The notes under the pieces are model-generated. The model saw nothing but the letters and a program-made list of their open reading frames with translations. It was not told the origin of the DNA and ran no database searches. This document shows, piece by piece, positions 20,045 through 34,250 of a stretch of 64,000 bases of DNA. The first letter of the stretch is position 1. Every line of letters starts with the position of its first letter. A program made the translations under genes and the position numbers. Source of the DNA: Stenotrophomonas maltophilia (GTDB lineage: Bacteria; Pseudomonadota; Gammaproteobacteria; Xanthomonadales; Xanthomonadaceae); contig NZ_CP033877.1 in the NCBI RefSeq assembly GCF_006970445.1, positions 3,046,750 through 3,110,749 on the forward strand. The letters are read 5' to 3'.

Positions 20045-20710
20045 ATGGAGACAGACACTACACGCTTGGGTCTGATCGAAGCCGGAGCTCCGTTTTCTGC
20101 TCCGGGCGCCGAAGCATCGCCCAACGCCACGACGCTGCATCGCCCCGGTTCGGTCCGGCTGCTCTCGCTTGATGCCCACGGACGCGTACTGGACTGGATC
20201 ACCTGGCAGGATGCGGCCTGCCTCTACGCCCGCGAGGCGGTGGCCTGGACGCTCGGCGATCCCTGCCTGCACATCCACGGCGGCACCAACCGCTTCAGCG
20301 GACTGCAGAGCGGCATGGACCTGCACCCGATCATCGCCGCCCGCGGCCACGCCCGCTCGCGCGCAATCGACCCGACGCCGAACCTGACCAACCAGGCCCT
20401 GTTCGCCCGCGACGCCCATCTGTGCATGTATTGCGGCCAGCAGTTCAGCCGCCCCACGCTCACCCGCGACCACGTCATGCCGCTGTCAAAGGGCGGGCTG
20501 GACTGCTGGGAAAACGTGGTCACCGCCTGCTTCCACTGCAATTCGCGCAAGAGCGACCGCACCCCGCAGCAGGCCGGCATGCCCCTGCTGGCGGTGCCCT
20601 ACCGGCCCAGCTGGATCGAGCACCTGATCCTGTCCAACCGCAACATCCTGGCCGACCAGATGGCCTTCCTGAAGGCGCAATTGCCCAAGCGCTCGAAACT
20701 GAGCACCTGA
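20045..20710 (+). CDS. HNH endonuclease
   Basis: A 221-residue protein with a C-terminal HNH nuclease domain: CMYCGQQF zinc knuckle, TRDHVMPLSKGG with the catalytic His, NVVTACFHCNSRKSDRTPQQ with the second Cys pair and Asn/His positions. The N-terminal 110 residues (SVRLLSLDAHGRVLDWITWQDAACLYAREAV) are an uncharacterised domain common to this stand-alone family in Xanthomonads. Not obviously a restriction or homing enzyme; no methylase, intron or phage gene adjoins. Start ATG follows a 62-bp perfect hairpin. Confidence 0.88.
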   Translation: METDTTRLGLIEAGAPFSAPGAEASPNATTLHRPGSVRLLSLDAHGRVLDWITWQDAACLYAREAVAWTLGDPCLHIHGGTNRFSGLQSGMDLHPIIAARGHARSRAIDPTPNLTNQALFARDAHLCMYCGQQFSRPTLTRDHVMPLSKGGLDCWENVVTACFHCNSRKSDRTPQQAGMPLLAVPYRPSWIEHLILSNRNILADQMAFLKAQLPKRSKLST

Positions 20711-23234: not shown

Positions 23235-23798
23235 TCAGTTCACCTGGAACTGCGCCCGGCAGCCATCACTCACCCAGATGCCGCGGCGATCCCAGCCCCA
23301 GCTCTGGCCTTCGATGCAGGCGCTGCGCGAATCCTGGCGGATCAGGCGCACACCCCGGCGGATGCGCGCATCGCAGTACTCCTGCCGATGACCATTGGAA
23401 TGGCAGGTGACCACATCGCCGCCGCCCCATCCGTTGCCATTGCCATTGCCCCAGCCGCCACCGTTGCCGCCCCAGCCACCACCCCGGCGGTATTCACCCA
23501 CGAATTCGGCACGGCACCCCTGTGTGACCCAGACGCCGTTGCGCGACTGGCCCCAGGTCTCACCTTCCACACAGGGCGAACCGGACAACTGGCGGATCAA
23601 CCGCGCGCGGCCGTCCAGGCGGCACTCGTTGCTGCGGTTCTTGACCGACTCGCAGCGCACGATGCCATTGCCATCGCGGCCGCCATAGCGGTCGTCGTCA
23701 TAGCCGTAGCCATAGCTCTGCGCCTGGGCGCCGCCGGCAGCCGCCAGCATCGGCAACAGGGTGCAGGCCAGAGTGCGCCAGGTGAGTGCCTTGCCCAT
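23235..23798 (-). CDS. DUF3011 exported protein, copy 1
   Basis: A 187-residue secreted or periplasmic protein with signal peptide ending AAGGAQAQ. Two DUF3011 repeats: VRCESVKNRSNECRLDGR...GQSRNGVWVTQGCRAEFVGEY and VTCHSNGHRQEYCDARIRR...WGWDRRGIWVSDGCRAQFQ, each with paired Cys and a W-x2-(R/N)x-G-(V/I)-WV core. A Gly/Asn/Trp-rich linker (about 30 residues) joins them. A paralogue with a charged Arg/Asp linker is at 33735-34250. Function unknown; cell-envelope location is likely. Confidence 0.85.
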   Translation of the reverse strand: MGKALTWRTLACTLLPMLAAAGGAQAQSYGYGYDDDRYGGRDGNGIVRCESVKNRSNECRLDGRARLIRQLSGSPCVEGETWGQSRNGVWVTQGCRAEFVGEYRRGGGWGGNGGGWGNGNGNGWGGGDVVTCHSNGHRQEYCDARIRRGVRLIRQDSRSACIEGQSWGWDRRGIWVSDGCRAQFQVN

Positions 23799-23896: not shown

Positions 23897-24598
23897 TCAA
23901 CCGGACCTGACTGGTCCAACGCCGCCCGAGTGGCTGCCGGCTGCCACACCACGGACCATGCCGTCGGCGTTTCCCAGCCGCTCCTCGAACGCGTAGGCGA
24001 ACAGCTCTGCGTCATTGCTGATGCCGAGCTTCCTCATCGCAGAGATGCGTTGCCGGCTGATGGTACTGACGGTACGCCGCAACTGCGCGGCGATCTCGGT
24101 GATCGAAGGACCCGACACATACAACCGCAACACTTCCAGCTCCTTGGGCGACAGCACTGAAAGCGACCGCTCGCGCCCGCAGTCCTGCAGGCAGGGCGCC
24201 AGCTCGGGGTCCAGGTAGATCCCGCCACTCAGTACGGTATCGACCGCCTTGCGGGCGCCATCCACGCCACTGCTTTTGCACACCAGTCCCCGCACACCCG
24301 TGCGCATGGCCATGTTCAAGGTCGTGGCATTGGTGACCATCGTGACCAGGATCACCGGCACCTTGGGGTAATTGCGACTCAACGACTGCAGCATCGCCTG
24401 GCCATCCGAGCGACCACCATTGGGCATCGAAAAATCAGTCACTACCAGATCAACGACTTCTTCGGCCAGGATCGACATAAGGCTTTCTGCACACCGCGCC
24501 TCTGCCACCACGCGATGGCGCCCACCGGCCTCGATCACGATGCGCGTGCCAAGCAGGACCAGGGGATGGTCGTCCGCGATGGCAATTCGAGTGAGCAT
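23897..24598 (-). CDS. LuxR/NarL-type response regulator (RcsB/FimZ-like)
   Basis: A 233-residue two-component regulator. Receiver domain: acidic pair Asp9-Asp10 in IAIADDHPLVL, phosphoacceptor Asp55 in VVTDFSMPNGG, Lys108 in GLVCKSSG. The LuxR helix-turn-helix is at about 148-195 (VLSPKELEVLRLYVSG, EIAAQLRRTVSTISRQR). No histidine kinase adjoins. It is divergent from the GTPase/roadblock/pilin gene run across a 250-base AT-richer gap and is its obvious candidate controller. ATG at 24598 chosen because the receiver starts at once; an in-frame ATG ten codons upstream exists. Confidence 0.9.
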   Translation of the reverse strand: MLTRIAIADDHPLVLLGTRIVIEAGGRHRVVAEARCAESLMSILAEEVVDLVVTDFSMPNGGRSDGQAMLQSLSRNYPKVPVILVTMVTNATTLNMAMRTGVRGLVCKSSGVDGARKAVDTVLSGGIYLDPELAPCLQDCGRERSLSVLSPKELEVLRLYVSGPSITEIAAQLRRTVSTISRQRISAMRKLGISNDAELFAYAFEERLGNADGMVRGVAAGSHSGGVGPVRSG

Positions 24599-24848
24599 GC
24601 TGATTACCCGTAAATAGTCACGCTGCAATGCGCAGCGAAAACCCTAGTAATCATTCCGGGCAACGTCAACTTAACAATGGCCCACTGCAATTGATTTCAT
24701 TCAAGCCAAATCGCCAGCCCGTTTCCATTATTTGCATTCGCGACAACAAACGCACGCCGCGCATAAACTTTCCCAATAGTTTCATTCCAGAAATCCGGAA
24801 AGGCCGTTTACATAGCCATCTCCGATCACTCGCTGCGCTGGACACCCC
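24599..24848. promoter_or_regulatory. Divergent, AT-richer control region of the GTPase/pilin locus
   Basis: About 250 non-coding bases between the response-regulator gene and the first gene of the GTPase run, visibly richer in A/T than the flanking genes (for example CAACTTAACAATGG and TTTCCATTATTTGC). I could not pick one convincing promoter. Position and composition suggest it holds promoters for both directions and perhaps regulator sites. Confidence 0.5.
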
Positions 24849-25556
24849 ATGGTCCGATTCCGTCGTCAATCATTTGAGGATCTGCAAGGACCACTTGAAC
24901 CAGCTCCGCTGGCACCGGCAACACTGCCGACGGCAGCATTGCCGTTCGTACAGCAATTGCGCCTGCACCTGGCGAGCGACAGTACGCCGTCGCGGTGGCC
25001 GGCCCATGCCGCGATCATCCATGGCGAGGCCCCGGTGTGCTGGCTGGATGCCAGGAACGACCAGATGATGACCACTGCGCCAGCGCCGATCACCCTGACG
25101 CTGCTGCAGAGGCTGCTGCGCGATGAGGATCCCCCGCTGAGCCTGGTGCCGGTAACCCAGGATGTGTTCGTGCAGCGCGCGACGGTGTCCAGCAACATCC
25201 CGCTGCGCCCGACCTTGTGGAACGTCGGCCTGGCCACGGCTGATCACAACGCGCCGATGCCTACCCTGCACGAGAGCGCGAAGCTGCGCCTTCGTCGCTG
25301 GCCGGATTTCCGCATCCTGGCCCATCGTCCCGATCACTTCCGACTGTGCGCGCTGCTGATCAAGCAGGGCGCGTCCGTGCAGGCGTGCTGCGACGTCCTC
25401 GACCTGCCGCACCATACCGTGCAGTCGTTCTTCAATGCGGCGTTTCTCACCGCCTATGCCTTTCCCGTCGTAGGCGAGGACGCACCCGTGCGCCCCTCGC
25501 CCACCGATGGCCTCGTCAACCTGTGGCGACAACTTCGTATCCGCTGGAGTGCATGA
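24849..25556 (+). CDS. Unknown protein, first gene of the GTPase/roadblock run
   Basis: A 235-residue soluble protein I do not recognise. It has a Pro/Ala-rich start, a middle region with AHAAIIHGEAPVCWLD, and a C-terminal part (LRLRRWPDFRILAHRPDHFRLCALLIKQ, then SVQACCDVLDLPHHTVQSFF) that could form a helix-turn-helix. Its stop overlaps the GTPase start by 4 bases, so the two are translationally coupled and probably act together. By analogy with GTPase/roadblock modules it could be an adaptor or effector; that is inference. No strong ribosome site precedes the ATG, so the true start may differ. Confidence 0.75.
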   Translation: MVRFRRQSFEDLQGPLEPAPLAPATLPTAALPFVQQLRLHLASDSTPSRWPAHAAIIHGEAPVCWLDARNDQMMTTAPAPITLTLLQRLLRDEDPPLSLVPVTQDVFVQRATVSSNIPLRPTLWNVGLATADHNAPMPTLHESAKLRLRRWPDFRILAHRPDHFRLCALLIKQGASVQACCDVLDLPHHTVQSFFNAAFLTAYAFPVVGEDAPVRPSPTDGLVNLWRQLRIRWSA

Positions 25557-26104
25557 CCGTGCGTGAGCACAAGATCGTAGTGATGGGCCCACTTGGCGCG
25601 GGCAAGTCCACCCTCGTGCAGACCCTGACCCGGGGCAAGGCCGTAGTGACCGAAGCTCGCAATACCGACCCTTCCGTGGGCAAGCAATTCACCACCGTCG
25701 CCATGGACTATGGCGACATCGACCTACCGGGTGGCGACCGCCTGCGCCTGTATGGATCCCCCGGACAGGAGCGCTTCTCCTACATCTGGCCGATCCTGCT
25801 GGCCGGTGCTGAAGGCGCCATCGTCCTGATCGACGGCAGCGCCAGCATGGACAGCACGCTGGCGGGGCAGCACCTGAAGGCCATCGCAGACAGCGCACCG
25901 GGCCTGCCCGTCGTCATCGGCTTCACCCGATGCGGCAGCACCGATGACCCGGTACAGCCGCACTGGCAGAACTGGTTGCAGGACCATGCACCGCACCTGC
26001 CGGCATTGCCGCTGGACCCGCGCGACATGGCGCAGGCCATCACTACGATGGATCTGCTGATGAGCCAGATCGAATGCAATGCCATGGTGGTCACCCATGA
26101 ATGA
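25553..26104 (+). CDS. Ras-like small GTPase of the MglA/Srb (COG2229) type
   Basis: A 183-residue GTP-binding protein. P-loop GPLGAGKST (residues 12-20); switch II/G3 region LYGSPGQERFSYIW (about 65-79), the PGQERF form found in bacterial MglA-like and conservon GTPases; G4, normally NKxD, is replaced by IGFTRCGSTDD, so guanine recognition is atypical. Start overlaps the upstream unknown gene; its stop overlaps the roadblock gene by 8 bases. Roadblock proteins typically bind or regulate such GTPases (MglB with MglA), so this is probably a GTPase switch with its own partners. Confidence 0.88.
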   Translation: MTVREHKIVVMGPLGAGKSTLVQTLTRGKAVVTEARNTDPSVGKQFTTVAMDYGDIDLPGGDRLRLYGSPGQERFSYIWPILLAGAEGAIVLIDGSASMDSTLAGQHLKAIADSAPGLPVVIGFTRCGSTDDPVQPHWQNWLQDHAPHLPALPLDPRDMAQAITTMDLLMSQIECNAMVVTHE

Positions 26105-26468
26105 CATCGGCCACACTTCGGCACTGGATGCCTTGGCACGCGACGTCACCGGCATCCAGGCCCTCGTCGTTGCCAGCACCGATGGCTTTGCGCTGGCCCA
26201 GGCCGGCCAGCAAGGCCACGTCGCCGATCGCTTGGCCGCGATGACCAGTTCGATGCTAGGCCTGGCCAGCGCGCTGGGCCGCGAACTGCACTTCGGCGAA
26301 CTCGACACACTGATCCTCGATGCCGCCAACGGCAAGGTACTGATGCTCGCCATTCCAGGAAATCAACCGCGCCTGCTGATGACCGCATGCGACCACAGCT
26401 GCGTCATCGGCAACGTGTTGTGGCATGCCAAACAATGCGTGCGTGCCCTGGCCGACAGCCCGAACTGA
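26097..26468 (+). CDS. Roadblock/LC7-domain protein 1
   Basis: A 123-residue protein of the roadblock/LC7 fold: LDALARDVTGIQALVVASTDGFALAQ (helix and first strands), ADRLAAMTSSMLGLASALGRELHFGELDTLILDAANGKVLMLAIPG and a C-terminal helix. Such proteins dimerise and act on Ras-like GTPases as GAP or scaffold. It overlaps the GTPase gene, which supports direct partnership. Confidence 0.88.
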   Translation: MNDIGHTSALDALARDVTGIQALVVASTDGFALAQAGQQGHVADRLAAMTSSMLGLASALGRELHFGELDTLILDAANGKVLMLAIPGNQPRLLMTACDHSCVIGNVLWHAKQCVRALADSPN

Positions 26469-26531
26469 TGCATGCCCCTCTCACTGCTCAGACGACTTTT
26501 CACCCCCCCACACCCGCAACGGACGACTGAA

Positions 26532-26894
26532 ATGAATATCGCCATCAATAAATGCCTGGACACGCTCATGCAGATCAATGGCGCGCAAGCCGTTGCCCTG
26601 GTCGACTACGAAAGCGGCATGCTTCTGGGTGAAGCCGGTTCGGGCGTGGACATGGAACTGGCGGCCGCCGGAAACACCGAGGTGCTGCGCGCCAAGATGA
26701 AAACGGCCGAAACGCTGAAGCTCAACGACAACATCGAAGACGTGCTGATCACCCTGGGTCGTGCGTACCACGTGCTGCGCCCGGTGTCGGCCAAGAAGGG
26801 CCTGTTCTTCTATGTGGTACTGGATCGGCAAAAGGCCAATCTTGCTCTCGCCCGGCGCATGGTACTGGACGTGGAAAGCTCGCTGGCGCTGTAG
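26532..26894 (+). CDS. Roadblock/LC7-like protein 2
   Basis: A 120-residue protein: MNIAINKCLDTLMQINGAQAVALVDYESGMLLGEAG, then VLRAKMKTAETLKLNDNIEDVLITLGRAYHVLRPV and KKGLFFYVVLDRQKANLALARRMV. The helix-strand-strand-helix-strand order matches roadblock/LC7, and it is more divergent than its neighbour. It begins 63 bases after roadblock 1. Two different roadblock proteins beside one GTPase could form a heterodimer or give separate activating and scaffolding roles. Confidence 0.82.
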   Translation: MNIAINKCLDTLMQINGAQAVALVDYESGMLLGEAGSGVDMELAAAGNTEVLRAKMKTAETLKLNDNIEDVLITLGRAYHVLRPVSAKKGLFFYVVLDRQKANLALARRMVLDVESSLAL

Positions 26895-26923
26895 CGCGGC
26901 AACGATAGACAGGGGATGCGAAT

Positions 26924-26955
26924 GCCGGGGCTGCTCTGGGGAGAGCAGCCCCGGC
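26924..26955 (+). repeat. Perfect 14-bp hairpin after the roadblock genes
   Basis: GCCGGGGCTGCTCT-GGGG-AGAGCAGCCCCGGC, 29 bases past the roadblock-2 stop, without a T-run. It may separate expression of the signalling genes from the pilin genes or protect mRNA ends. Confidence 0.8.
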
Positions 26956-27001
26956 CTGTAGTTGCGCCGCGCGCCCTTCTCAACCGCAGGAGCTGCCGTC
27001 C

Positions 27002-27439
27002 ATGCGGCCTCGATCAACCACACAGGCAACACGTCGCCCACCACACTACCGGCCTTGGGCGTCGGCCAGCATCGCCGCCGGACTGACGGCCGTCTACGCG
27101 CTGCTGTTGTGTGCGCCCCGCTTGGATGTCGGTGCCAGCCGCACCTCGCTGCGCGACGCGGCCAGCGTGCTGGGCGGCGCTATCGCCGCCGTGGAAAACA
27201 GTTACGCCGAAAGCGATCTCACCGTGACTGACCAGCACCTCGGCCTGCCTGCCAGCGCCGCACACTGCGCGCGCCTGCGCGCATCGCTGCCCGATAGCGG
27301 CCGCGCAGTGCTGACCTGTGACCTGCGCCAGGACGGCCGCGTGCAGTGGTGGCGAACCCCCGCAGGAGAATGGCGATGCAACGCAAGCATGGCCGAAGCG
27401 CCGGCGCCATGCCCCACGGAATTACGGCCCACGTTCTGA
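27002..27439 (+). CDS. Membrane-anchored pilin-like protein without prepilin leader
   Basis: A 145-residue protein with one membrane segment (about residues 20-39) and an extracytoplasmic domain. There is no G/FSLIE prepilin cleavage site, but the C-terminal part follows the layout of the next two prepilins: LGLPxSxxxC, then a Cys in a strand (VLTCDLRQDG), then GEWRC, then a final Cys near the end (PCPTEL). In the prepilins these read LGLPESSERC, IDCLL, HEWRC and KGC. It looks like a pilin-fold relative with a new membrane anchor. Good ribosome site GCAGGAG 9 bases before the ATG. The kinship is my own reading by eye. Confidence 0.75.
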   Translation: MRPRSTTQATRRPPHYRPWASASIAAGLTAVYALLLCAPRLDVGASRTSLRDAASVLGGAIAAVENSYAESDLTVTDQHLGLPASAAHCARLRASLPDSGRAVLTCDLRQDGRVQWWRTPAGEWRCNASMAEAPAPCPTELRPTF

Positions 27440-27592
27440 TTATTCGCAAAACCACCGCAAAACCACTTAATAAGGTCGACTTTACCAATTATTGAATATA
27501 CGCACCGCTGTGCACGTGATTTTCTATCACTGCGCCACGAATCATCGTTTCGCAGCCAAACCAACGAAACCGCCACGTCACAGAGGATTACC
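27440..27592. promoter_or_regulatory. AT-rich leader/promoter region of the prepilin genes
   Basis: A 153-base gap with AT-rich stretches (for example CACTTAATAAGG, ACCAATTATTGAATATACG), likely a separate promoter for the prepilins. No clear sigma-54 element was found. Confidence 0.45.
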
Positions 27593-28048
27593 ATGAATAC
27601 CGCATTCGGCCGCACATCCCGCGCAGGCAAAAGCGCATCCCGGCAGAAGGGCTTTTCCCTTATTGAACTCATGGTAGTGGTAGCGATCATCGGGATTCTG
27701 GCGATGATTGCCCTGCCGCAGTATCAGCGGTTCTCGGCCAAGGCAAAGCTGGCGGGCGCGCTCGCGGAGGTCGCCGGCGGGAAAGTTGGCGTCGAATCAC
27801 TCTTGGCTGAGGGCAGCGATATCACAACGCCTGCATCGATTGGCCTGCCCGAATCCAGTTCCCGCTGCGATGCGATTGCGGTAACGACCGATGTCACCAA
27901 CGGAGCTACGAGCATTGACTGTCAGCTCAAGAGTGACGCCATGTTTGGCAATGGCAGCCTGACCCTGGATCGCGACTCGGAGGGCGTCTGGCTCTGCAGG
28001 AGCGACATCTCGGACCAGAGCCTGCTTCCCCAGGGCTGCCAAGCCTGA
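27593..28048 (+). CDS. Type IV prepilin 1
   Basis: A 151-residue prepilin. A 20-residue basic leader ends SRQKG, cut before FSLIELMVVVAIIGILAMIA with the essential Glu at +5, the class III signal for PilD peptidase. The mature alpha-1 helix continues PQYQRFSAKAKLAGALAEV; the globular part has GLPESSSRC, IDCQLK, VWLCRSD and a final GC, probably two disulfides. Ribosome site AGAGGA. No assembly ATPase, secretin or platform gene is nearby, so it must use machinery encoded elsewhere. Confidence 0.9.
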   Translation: MNTAFGRTSRAGKSASRQKGFSLIELMVVVAIIGILAMIALPQYQRFSAKAKLAGALAEVAGGKVGVESLLAEGSDITTPASIGLPESSSRCDAIAVTTDVTNGATSIDCQLKSDAMFGNGSLTLDRDSEGVWLCRSDISDQSLLPQGCQA

Positions 28049-28158
28049 TCACGGGCGCATGCCACTGTGCGGACTACCCAACCTGCCCACAGTCGCATGC
28101 GCCTTTCCATTGCGTGCGCCATCCACGATTCAACGTTGATTTCCTGATGTAGGAGCCG

Positions 28159-28641
28159 ATGAAAAAGAAAATATCAAAGGCTGGCTGCGCATCGAATCAC
28201 GCACACCACCAGCGCGGATTCTCTCTGATCGAACTCATGGTGGTCCTGGCCATCATCATGGTTCTCTCGCTGATCGCAGTCCCGCAATACAAGAAGTTCT
28301 CTACCCGGTCCAAGCTGGCGGCGGCCCTGGCCGAATTGGCCAGCGGGAAGGCTGGAGTGGAGGCGTGGCTGGCCGAACGGGGTGATCTCTATGGCTCAGA
28401 CAACCGCAAGCTGGGACTACCGGAGAGCAGTGAGCGCTGTGAAACCATCGCAACACGTATTCGTGCGGATGGCGGCCTCGAGATCGATTGCCTGCTGCGA
28501 TTCGACACTGGCTACAACGTGGGGACATGGCGAAACAACCTGGTGCTGATCAGGGACTCGGGCAGCCATGAATGGCGCTGCTGGACTGCCATCCCCTATT
28601 ACGACCTCCTGCCCAAAGGCTGCGGCCCCGACAATCCGTAG
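28159..28641 (+). CDS. Type IV prepilin 2
   Basis: A 160-residue prepilin paralogous to prepilin 1. It also has a 20-residue leader (ending HHQRG) before FSLIELMVVLAIIMVLSLIA, Glu at +5, then PQYKKFSTRSKLAAALAELASGKAGVEAW. C-terminal markers are LGLPESSERC, IDCLLRFD, HEWRCW and LPKGCG. Ribosome site AGGAG. Two adjacent, clearly diverged prepilins could be major and minor subunits or alternative subunits. Confidence 0.9.
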   Translation: MKKKISKAGCASNHAHHQRGFSLIELMVVLAIIMVLSLIAVPQYKKFSTRSKLAAALAELASGKAGVEAWLAERGDLYGSDNRKLGLPESSERCETIATRIRADGGLEIDCLLRFDTGYNVGTWRNNLVLIRDSGSHEWRCWTAIPYYDLLPKGCGPDNP

Positions 28642-28646
28642 CCTGC

Positions 28647-29138
28647 ATGCACACACTTCAAGCAGTTGACGCTTCGCCGCTCCATTCAGGCAGCGGCGCC
28701 CGCGAAAGCCGGTCATCCGCGGCCCCCACCCTCGTCATCGCCGATGCAAATCCCTGGGTCCGACGAGAACTGATACACAGCGCCCTCCCCTACCTGGGCG
28801 GCAAAGCCCTCGGCGAAGCACGCTCGCCCGCAGAGGTCCTGAGCCAGATCGCCAGCCCGCGATGCAAGGCACTGATCATCGATCCCTGCATGCCGACTGT
28901 AGGCCAGGTTGACGGCATGCCACTGCTGCGCCGCATCTGCTGCCTGCGCAGGGATCTGCTCATCCTCGTCCTGGCCCAGCAACCCTTGCGCGTATTGCAG
29001 GACCGCGCCCTGCCGGCGCAGATCGGTCATGTCTATGCCAAGACGGTCAATCCATCGTGGCTGAGCCATTTCGTAAGCCAGGCAGTACGCGGGAGGGCAC
29101 CCGGCGTTACAGCACCGGCGCAGGATGCAGCCCGGTAA
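28647..29138 (+). CDS. Stand-alone receiver domain, probably atypical
   Basis: A 163-residue protein with a receiver domain and no output domain. IADANPWVRREL aligns with IADDHPLVLLGT of the divergent response regulator; the acidic pair is reduced to Asp33-Ala34. IIDPCMPTVGQVDG keeps phosphoacceptor Asp79 and the MP-x-G pattern, and YAKT gives Lys132. Missing one metal-binding acid, it may phosphorylate poorly or act as a phosphorylation-independent partner. It begins 5 bases after prepilin 2, so it is part of that transcript. Its end overlaps the converging small gene by 32 bases. Confidence 0.78.
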   Translation: MHTLQAVDASPLHSGSGARESRSSAAPTLVIADANPWVRRELIHSALPYLGGKALGEARSPAEVLSQIASPRCKALIIDPCMPTVGQVDGMPLLRRICCLRRDLLILVLAQQPLRVLQDRALPAQIGHVYAKTVNPSWLSHFVSQAVRGRAPGVTAPAQDAAR

Positions 29139-29364
29139 CCGGTCCGGAGGCGGTCGCCAACGCCTCGAAGTGCACGGCATCCACGCTGCTGCCCAGCGCC
29201 TCCACGCGCACCGTGCTGCGCTGGCCGGTCCGGCGATGGTGGGCGCTGGCCCGGCCAACCGCGGCGTCGAACGCTGCGGCGCCGGTGTTGAATGCTTCGG
29301 CCAGGCCCGCAGCGGGGTCCAACAGGGACCACTGCGCGGCACTGCACTTGACGGTAATGACCAT
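29107..29364 (-). CDS. Small conserved protein, paralogue of the 22857-23060 product
   Basis: An 85-residue soluble protein: MVITVKCSAAQWSLLDPAAG, then AFNTGAAAFDAAVGRASAHH and TGQRSTVRVEALGSSVDAV, ending in an extra LHPAPVL tail. The 67-residue paralogue at 22857 shares the strand-helix-strand order and the TGQR...VRVEA ending. AAGGAG ribosome site upstream supports the start. Overlaps the end of the receiver gene in antisense. Confidence 0.75.
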   Translation of the reverse strand: MVITVKCSAAQWSLLDPAAGLAEAFNTGAAAFDAAVGRASAHHRRTGQRSTVRVEALGSSVDAVHFEALATASGPVTGLHPAPVL

Positions 29365-33734: not shown

Positions 33735-34250
33735 ATGACCCATCGCCTGCTGTTGCCGATTGCCATCTCCTCCCTGGCCCTGCTGCTGGCCGCCACCACG
33801 GTGGCAGCCCAGGATTACGACAGCGATCACATTCCACCGCTGCGCTGCGAGTCGCAGTTCAACAAGACCCAGCAGTGCCCGATCGAAGGCCGCATGCGCC
33901 TGGCCAGGCAGCTGTCGGTCACCCGCTGCGTCGAGGACCAGAACTGGGGCCAGAACCGCCGCATGCTCTGGGTCACCGACGGCTGTCGCGCCGAGTTCGT
34001 GGCCGACGGACAGGGACGCGGTCGCTGGCCGGGGCGCGGGCGGGACCGTGACCGGGATGACGATGGCGAGCGCCTGGTCTGCGAGTCCTACGAGCAGAAG
34101 GACAAGGAATGCCGCATCCGTGTGCGTCACGAGGTGCGCCTGGTCAAGCAGAAGTCGGTGACACCGTGCGTCGAGGATCGCAACTGGGGTTGGGACCGCC
34201 GCGGCGTGTGGGTCAGCGATGGCTGCCGTGCCGAGTTCCGTGTGTATTGA
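33735..34250 (+). CDS. DUF3011 exported protein, copy 2
   Basis: A 171-residue exported protein; signal peptide ends TTVAAQ. Two DUF3011 repeats: LRCESQFNKTQQCPIEGR...NWGQNRRMLWVTDGCRAEF and LVCESYEQKDKECRIRVRH...NWGWDRRGVWVSDGCRAEF. The linker is Arg/Asp/Gly-rich, whereas copy 1 at 23235 has a Gly/Asn/Trp-rich one. The repeats within each protein are more regular than the linkers, as expected after duplication. Confidence 0.85.
   Translation: MTHRLLLPIAISSLALLLAATTVAAQDYDSDHIPPLRCESQFNKTQQCPIEGRMRLARQLSVTRCVEDQNWGQNRRMLWVTDGCRAEFVADGQGRGRWPGRGRDRDRDDDGERLVCESYEQKDKECRIRVRHEVRLVKQKSVTPCVEDRNWGWDRRGVWVSDGCRAEFRVY

What the first reader, a model, noticed from the sequence alone, without database searches (positions are those of the whole stretch)
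23897..29138. A GTPase/roadblock/pilin locus with two related receiver domains
Seen: one divergent RcsB-like response regulator, then same-strand genes for an unknown protein, a Ras-like GTPase (start and stop overlapping its neighbours), two roadblock proteins, a pilin-like protein, two prepilins and a stand-alone receiver. The two receivers align (IADDHPLVL/IADANPWVR; VVTDFSMPNGG/IIDPCMPTVGQ). Known: MglA/MglB and Streptomyces conservons pair a small GTPase with roadblock proteins, and MglA-type switches control type IV pili. Inference: a dedicated switch controlling deployment of this pilin set under the response regulator. No kinase, secretin, ATPase or platform gene adjoins. I know no named system with this gene set.
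Basis: partly seen in the sequence, partly recalled or inferred. Interest (0 to 1): 0.8.

Follow-up and report, generated by a model that had tools for sequence, protein, structure and literature searches.

The report
Pilin cassette with a GTPase switch
Some Stenotrophomonas bacteria carry a removable nine-gene block that joins a Ras-like on/off switch and a gene regulator to extra pilus-building proteins, and a DNA tag that is rare elsewhere in the genome suggests the switch and the pilins are turned on together.

Summary
The four-gene core (UNK, GTPase, two roadblock proteins) resembles the published 'Group 3 MglA system' (PMC4316618); a copy without pilins lies elsewhere in this genome. New here: (1) The window version is a distinct branch, 14 loci in 13 of 91 Stenotrophomonas genomes; its UNK lacks the receiver-like N-terminus, and its response regulator occurs in exactly those 13 genomes. 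(2) The block is present or absent as a unit: 12 of 12 readable empty sites (17 fetched) have 115-209 bp where the window has 5,308 bp. (3) Prepilins adjoin 12 of 14 such loci, 0 of 48 other relatives within 9 kb. (4) A 17-bp box lies before both UNK and the first prepilin; outside the block its pattern occurs once in 20 whole genomes. (5) One relative carries an EvgS/BvgS-like hybrid kinase beside the regulator; all 25 genomes tested have a homologue.

A new variant of a known kind.

The parts
23897..24598 (-). RR: LuxR/NarL-type response regulator, 233 aa, with the usual receiver residues (DD, D, T, K read by eye)
   Evidence: Pfam Response_reg + GerE; alignment; orthologue above 185 bits in 13 of 91 genus genomes, the same 13 that hold this GTPase branch
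24721..24737 (+). second copy of the promoter box, 48 bp upstream of the first
   Evidence: motif score 20.1, second best in the 64-kb window; a copy above 9 bits at this spacing in 5 of 10 dxs-site loci
24769..24785 (+). promoter box before UNK (TTTCCCAATAGTTTCAT)
   Evidence: intergenic alignment of ten loci; matrix; whole-genome pattern
24849..25556 (+). UNK: 235 aa; middle domain plus C-terminal winged-helix-like domain; lacks the receiver-like N-terminus of its paralogues
   Evidence: alignment of 30 sequences; AlphaFold models and fold comparison
25553..26104 (+). GTPase: small Ras/MglA-like GTPase, 183 aa
   Evidence: Pfam; profile against PDB, best row a Rab GTPase E 1.8e-11; alignment
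26097..26468 (+). RB1: first roadblock (MglB-like) protein, 123 aa
   Evidence: Pfam Robl_LC7 E 9e-11; 59% identical over 100 aa to the own-genome paralogue
26532..26894 (+). RB2: second roadblock-like protein, 120 aa, the most conserved gene of the block
   Evidence: 90-98% identity in nine other dxs-site loci; profile hit 7yh1 E 0.0022
27002..27439 (+). PILL: pilin-headed protein with a hydrophobic segment but no G-F-x-x-x-E cleavage motif
   Evidence: Pfam Pilin borderline; the eight full-length homologues found also lack the motif, read by eye
27433..27449 (+). weak partner box 48 bp upstream of the pilin box (overlaps the last bases of PILL)
   Evidence: positive score at this spacing in 8 of 10 loci, above 10 bits in only 3; weak in the window (5.7)
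27481..27497 (+). promoter box before PIL1 (TTTACCAATTATTGAAT)
27593..28048 (+). PIL1: type IV prepilin, 151 aa
   Evidence: Pfam Pilin E 1.5e-17 + N_methyl
28159..28641 (+). PIL2: type IV prepilin, 160 aa
   Evidence: Pfam Pilin E 4.9e-10 + N_methyl
28647..29138 (+). REC: stand-alone receiver; keeps phospho-acceptor D and the K, lost one acidic residue and the T/S (read by eye)
23914..29165 (.). the presence/absence block as bounded by comparison with empty sites (approximate edges)

Best explanation
A self-contained, dispensable pilin cassette run by a variant of the Group 3 MglA (GTPase/roadblock) switch. Proposed working: the response regulator, phosphorylated by an EvgS/BvgS-like hybrid kinase encoded elsewhere, binds the paired 17-bp boxes and turns on the UNK-GTPase-RB1-RB2 operon and the prepilin genes together. 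The prepilins are assembled by the ordinary chromosomal type IV pilus machine. RB1 and RB2 act on the GTPase as a two-part activator of GTP hydrolysis, and the GTP-bound form decides when or where the cassette's pili are built; REC may couple phosphorylation to the switch. Shown: the unit, its co-inheritance, the pilin association, the shared box that is rare elsewhere. Inferred: which protein binds the box, which kinase feeds the regulator, that RB1/RB2 act on this GTPase, that the output is pilus deployment, and any role of REC and PILL.
For: Block present/absent as a unit. Regulator in 13 of 91 genomes, identical to the 13 with this GTPase branch. REC in exactly the ten dxs-site genomes, 10 of 91 at 1e-6. 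Prepilins beside 12 of 14 type I loci, in two arrangements and at different chromosomal sites, against 0 of 48 and 0 of 20 other relatives; tblastn with the window pilins agrees. Box: a matrix trained on RR-UNK intergenic copies only has its best site at a corresponding place before PIL1 in 9 of 10 dxs-site loci (second best in the tenth, G256, after its 48-bp partner); dinucleotide shuffles reach the best score in at most 5 of 1000 for 8 of the 10. Over 20 whole genomes the pattern has one exact hit outside the block. Boxes also precede pilins in L077 and L079, at 0 to 4 of 1000 shuffles. Kinase: L079 carries an SBP_bac_3/PAS/HisKA/HATPase/receiver hybrid kinase next to the RR; all 25 genomes tested have a homologue above 1000 bits, and the own one (G000:C1:184898-188350) lies head to head with the nearest RR paralogue. 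Pilus machine: pilS-, pilR- and pilB-like frames by two tandem PilA-type genes at 3.53 Mb, named by me from sequence, no family search. A report on a bee symbiont ties an unlinked mglB of a Group 3 locus to type IV pilus-dependent behaviour (PMC11112851).
Against: Two of 14 type I loci (L078, L080) have no prepilin within 9 kb, so the switch can exist without them. In 2 of 10 loci the pre-pilin box is not convincing alone (48 and 120 of 1000 shuffles); the -48 partner is absent in 2 of 10 and weak in 5 more. The window's pilin box scores 15.8, and matches above 15 occur about once per 82 kb in other GTPase loci (16 in 1.32 Mb). The ten loci share ancestry, so their boxes are not independent. 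The pattern was written after seeing the boxes of the window and its relatives, so the 17 hits inside the block are largely by construction; only the near-absence elsewhere informs. With one mismatch allowed the own genome has five sites outside the block: one inside a frame (L189), one inside pilA coding sequence by my reading, three undetermined. Nothing shows that the RR rather than UNK binds the box. RB2's roadblock fold rests on one weak profile hit. No Hpt domain was found in the L079 kinase at E 0.01, though the core homologue of that genome has one. Relatives of the switch mostly lack pilins, so pili are not its general neighbour.
Confidence: 0.48

Rival explanations
1. The switch controls transcription, not pilus assembly: UNK's winged helix binds the box and the GTPase/roadblock proteins gate UNK, so the module is a G-protein-controlled transcription switch and the pilins are merely its targets.
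For: Wuichet and Sogaard-Andersen proposed that Group 3 systems may regulate transcription because of the receiver-like plus winged-helix partner (PMC4316618, section 18). The UNK model has a winged-helix-like C-terminus. The box lies before UNK and PIL1.
Against: Loci of the UNK relatives without this RR (types II/III and class loci) show only scattered box matches: 16 above 15 bits in 1.32 Mb (their places were not checked gene by gene). The box tracks the RR branch. The UNK fold match is weak (Foldseek E 0.38 or worse).
Confidence: 0.25
2. The four-gene switch and the pilin genes are independent passengers of one variable locus; common inheritance, not common function, keeps them together.
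For: The block sits in one site flanked by conserved genes and comes and goes as a unit. Most GTPase/roadblock relatives examined have no pilins.
Against: Prepilins also adjoin the same branch at other sites in another order (L077, L079), and both promoters carry a box that is rare elsewhere.
Confidence: 0.2
3. An ordinary accessory pilin locus under a two-component regulator in which the GTPase module is decaying or repurposed (receiver-like half of UNK lost, G4 and G3 motifs altered).
For: UNK lacks its receiver-like half; GTPase G3 reads GSPGQ and G4 TRCG; L078 lacks RB2.
Against: RB2 is 90-98% and the GTPase 70-97% identical in nine other dxs-site loci while PIL1 falls to 52%, which speaks against decay of the switch.
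Confidence: 0.07

Closest known systems
Group 3 MglA systems (Wuichet and Sogaard-Andersen 2014, PMC4316618; sections 14, 15, 18 read, other passages by term search)
   Same: Unknown protein, MglA-like GTPase and two MglB-like genes in a row, in Stenotrophomonas among others; the unknown protein's C-terminus predicted winged helix; Thr rather than Arg in G2; G4 without the usual lysine
   Different: UNK lacks the receiver-like N-terminus; G3 is GSPGQ not GTPGQ; a response regulator, a stand-alone receiver, two prepilins and a pilin-headed protein are added in one block
Myxococcus xanthus MglA/MglB/RomR polarity module (PMC9481161: abstract, outline and passages seen)
   Same: Small GTPase with roadblock GAP linked to type IV pili, with a response regulator (RomR) in the module
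   Different: Different MglA group; no pilin genes beside it in what I read; no sequence relation of REC to RomR was tested
Actinobacterial conservons (Cvn; PMC13343842 abstract, PMC4316618 section 18)
   Same: Four-gene GTPase/roadblock/unknown-protein operon tied to two-component signalling
   Different: Conservons carry their own histidine kinase and one roadblock gene; no kinase is in the window locus and it has two roadblock genes
EvgAS/BvgAS two-component systems (search listing only; the architecture is recalled)
   Same: The L079 kinase has periplasmic binding domains, PAS, HisKA, HATPase and receiver; the RR is LuxR-type
   Different: The window's RR has no adjacent kinase; no Hpt hit in the L079 kinase; no binding-site identity with BvgA or EvgA was tested
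Mgl locus of Snodgrassella (PMC11112851; section 18 and passages read)
   Same: Same MglA group; a mutation in an unlinked mglB altered colony-edge (soft-agar) behaviour that the authors link to type IV pili
   Different: No pilin cassette or response regulator described in what I read

Membership tests
Group 3 MglA system | Neighbourhood: unknown protein + MglA homologue + one or two MglB homologues | tested here: met
   RB2's roadblock assignment itself is weak
Group 3 MglA system | Unknown protein with receiver-like N-terminal and winged-helix C-terminal regions (paper: 'typically') | tested here: not met
Group 3 MglA system | G3 motif GTPGQ and no Arg next to the G2 Thr | tested here: not met
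   G2 reads TT, no Arg (met), but G3 is GSPGQ in the window, L062 and L063, and GTPGQ or GVPGQ in the other 12 rows
Group 3 MglA system | Falls in the Group 3 clade of an MglA-family tree | not tested
   No tree with the five published groups was built; filed as a variant, not a member
Roadblock/MglB family | RB1 matches Robl_LC7 above the curated cut-off | tested here: met
   41.8 against 23 bits
Roadblock/MglB family | RB2 matches Robl_LC7 above the curated cut-off | tested here: inconclusive
   No Pfam Robl hit up to E 1, but a family profile hits 7yh1, a roadblock protein, at E 0.0022
Type IV prepilins | Class III signal G-F-x-x-x-E plus hydrophobic segment, and Pilin domain | tested here: met
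   PIL1 and PIL2; PILL lacks the signal motif
Phosphorylatable receivers | Two acidic residues, phospho-acceptor D, T/S, K | tested here: inconclusive
   RR complete by eye; REC keeps D and K but not the second acid or T/S in the ten loci, by eye

The most novel reading that the evidence does not exclude
A closed-loop pilin-swapping cassette: one private operator drives a G-protein switch and a replaceable set of pilins; PILL, a pilin head that cannot be cleaved, sits in the inner membrane as a gauge of the pilin pool; and the receiver lost from UNK has been replaced in trans by RR and REC, so a phosphorelay input was moved from inside the switch protein to separate, tunable parts. The winged helix of UNK would be a bacterial counterpart of the one in GATOR1 (Npr2/Npr3), next to a Ras-like GTPase and two roadblock proteins.
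Probability: 0.12. Interest if true: 0.85.

Novelty: new variant of a known kind. Interest (0 to 1): 0.6.

Why it matters
What Group 3 GTPase systems control is barely known in what I read: a suggestion of transcription control (PMC4316618) and one report tying an unlinked mglB to type IV pilus-dependent behaviour (PMC11112851). A natural cassette that ties one of them to two pilin genes through a shared promoter box, and that is simply absent from close relatives, makes the question testable with a handful of gene removals and reporters. It also shows a switch protein without its built-in receiver where a separate regulator has joined, a case of rewiring between two-component and GTPase signalling.
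Full report
What is there. The window (24 to 29 kb) holds one divergent LuxR-type response regulator (RR) and eight same-strand genes: UNK, a small GTPase, RB1, RB2, PILL, PIL1, PIL2 and REC. The GTPase start overlaps the UNK stop, and RB1 starts inside the GTPase gene. RB1 is a Pfam roadblock protein; RB2 has no Pfam roadblock hit and is called roadblock-like from one profile match (7yh1, E 0.0022). PIL1 and PIL2 are type IV prepilins; PILL has a pilin head and a hydrophobic segment but no cleavage motif, as is true of the eight full-length homologues found. REC is a degenerate receiver: by eye it keeps the phospho-acceptor and the lysine but not the second acidic residue or the T/S.

Which genome. 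The nearest named relatives are Stenotrophomonas maltophilia D457 (GTPase 97%) and E301 (91%), so the window is taken to be from the S. maltophilia complex; this is inference.

Three kinds of module. The GTPase was searched in 198 family genomes (53 with a match), 91 genus genomes (76 with a match) and 369 class genomes (63 with a match at 1e-12). In the genus the matches fall into bands: 14 loci in 13 genomes above 200 bits (type I, the window's kind), a band of 140-168 bits in 69 of 91 genomes by my count (type II, own copy at G000:C1:4101239), and a third near 62-86 bits (type III), plus two fragments near 20 bits. Gene maps of the loci fetched show UNK-GTPase-RB1-RB2 in types I and II and, in most type III loci read, RB1-RB2-(UNK-like)-GTPase; three loci (L082, L086, L102) differ. 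So the four-gene core is a recurring unit and the pilins are not part of it in general.

The type I additions travel together. REC occurs in 10 of 91 at 1e-6, exactly the ten genomes whose type I locus is at the dxs site. In 12 of 12 genomes where both flanking genes were found (17 fetched), the site is empty: 115-209 bp separate genes that lie 5,308 bp apart in the window. Similarity to eight empty sites ends at 23,911-23,935 and resumes at 29,166 in six, at 29,177 and 29,192 in two. The GTPase tree has the same branching order as the flank tree for the ten occupied genomes, with empty ones interleaved.

Pilins. A prepilin motif scan within 9 kb (less where a locus ended) found prepilins at 12 of 14 type I loci: ten at the dxs site downstream of RB2, and L077 and L079 upstream of UNK at other sites. 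L078 and L080 have none. Of 48 other GTPase loci scanned none has one, and tblastn with the window pilins agrees; nor do 20 class-level loci, taken from the hits in 63 genomes (looser motif, whole locus, one of them only 5.8 kb). The scan misses some second pilins. In nine other dxs-site loci RB2 is 90-98% identical to the window's, the GTPase 70-97%, PIL1 52-85%: a conserved switch with variable pilins. The genome has two further PilA-type genes beside pilS-, pilR- and pilB-like frames at 3.53 Mb, and one more pilin-domain hit at 4.015 Mb; those gene names are mine, from sequence.

Shared promoter box. The RR-UNK intergenic region of the ten dxs-site loci contains a conserved TTTCCCAATAGTTTCAT-like block. 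A matrix built only from RR-UNK intergenic copies (seven instances) has its best site before PIL1 at a corresponding place in 9 of 10 loci; in G256 that place is second best, after its partner 48 bp upstream. Dinucleotide shuffles reach the best score in at most 5 of 1000 for eight loci, 48 for G255 and 120 for G269 (first look, where G235 was read at the wrong pilin). A partner with positive score lies 48 bp upstream in 8 of 10 pre-pilin regions (above 10 bits in 3), and above 9 bits at 48 bp in 5 of 10 UNK promoters. In the 64-kb window the three best matches are these sites (31.0, 20.1, 15.8; next 12.5). Control: 16 matches above 15 in 1.32 Mb of other GTPase loci, 1 in 0.26 Mb of empty-site and own-genome stretches, so a score of 15.8 alone is not rare across megabases. 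An IUPAC pattern, written after seeing these boxes, has 18 exact matches in 20 whole genomes: 17 in the cassette of the ten occupied genomes (seven have both sites, three have one; largely by construction) and one outside, in G272, an empty-site genome; the reversed control has none. With one mismatch the own genome has five outside sites: one in a frame, one in pilA coding sequence by my reading, three unresolved. Boxes also precede the pilins of L077 and L079 (0 to 4 of 1000 shuffles).

Kinase. L079 carries a 1192-aa hybrid kinase convergent with the RR; no Hpt domain was found in it at E 0.01. All 25 genomes tested have a homologue above 1000 bits; the own one lies head to head with the nearest RR paralogue. 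This makes it the best candidate to phosphorylate the window's RR; no specificity test was made. 'EvgS/BvgS-like' rests on domain order and recall.

Conclusion. The cassette is real, bounded and co-inherited, and its two promoters share a box that is rare elsewhere. The simplest account is a regulator-driven, GTPase-switched pilin cassette. What the GTPase does to pili is not shown. Literature: eight full-text searches listed no description of the nine-gene set; some listings were cut (15 of 74, 12 of 45), and the library lacks most subscription papers. On checking I lowered the main confidence from 0.50 to 0.48 and interest from 0.62 to 0.60, because the pattern is partly circular and one-mismatch sites exist.

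Noticed in passing
window 23235-23798 (-) and 33735-34250 (+): Two related small secreted-looking proteins lie either side of the region; in relatives the second is about 46% identical to the first.
   Followed up: no
L077 3730 and 14618; L079 16245 and 16733: Box-like sites lie upstream of an autotransporter gene, an outer-membrane usher operon and other genes near two type I loci, so the box family may have wider targets in those strains.
   Followed up: no
L082, L086, L102: Three loci carry the GTPase with other partner genes (clusters c65-c71) in a conserved order that was not identified.
   Followed up: no
L107 11463-11810: A second RB2-like gene lies upstream of UNK in one type II locus.
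   Followed up: no
L078 against L077 (one genome, G220): One genome has two type I loci that complement each other: L078 has RR but no RB2 or pilin, L077 has pilin and RB2 but no RR.
   Followed up: partly
window 20045-20710: An HNH-type nuclease-like frame (named by eye) sits directly before dxs and stays with it in relatives.
   Followed up: no
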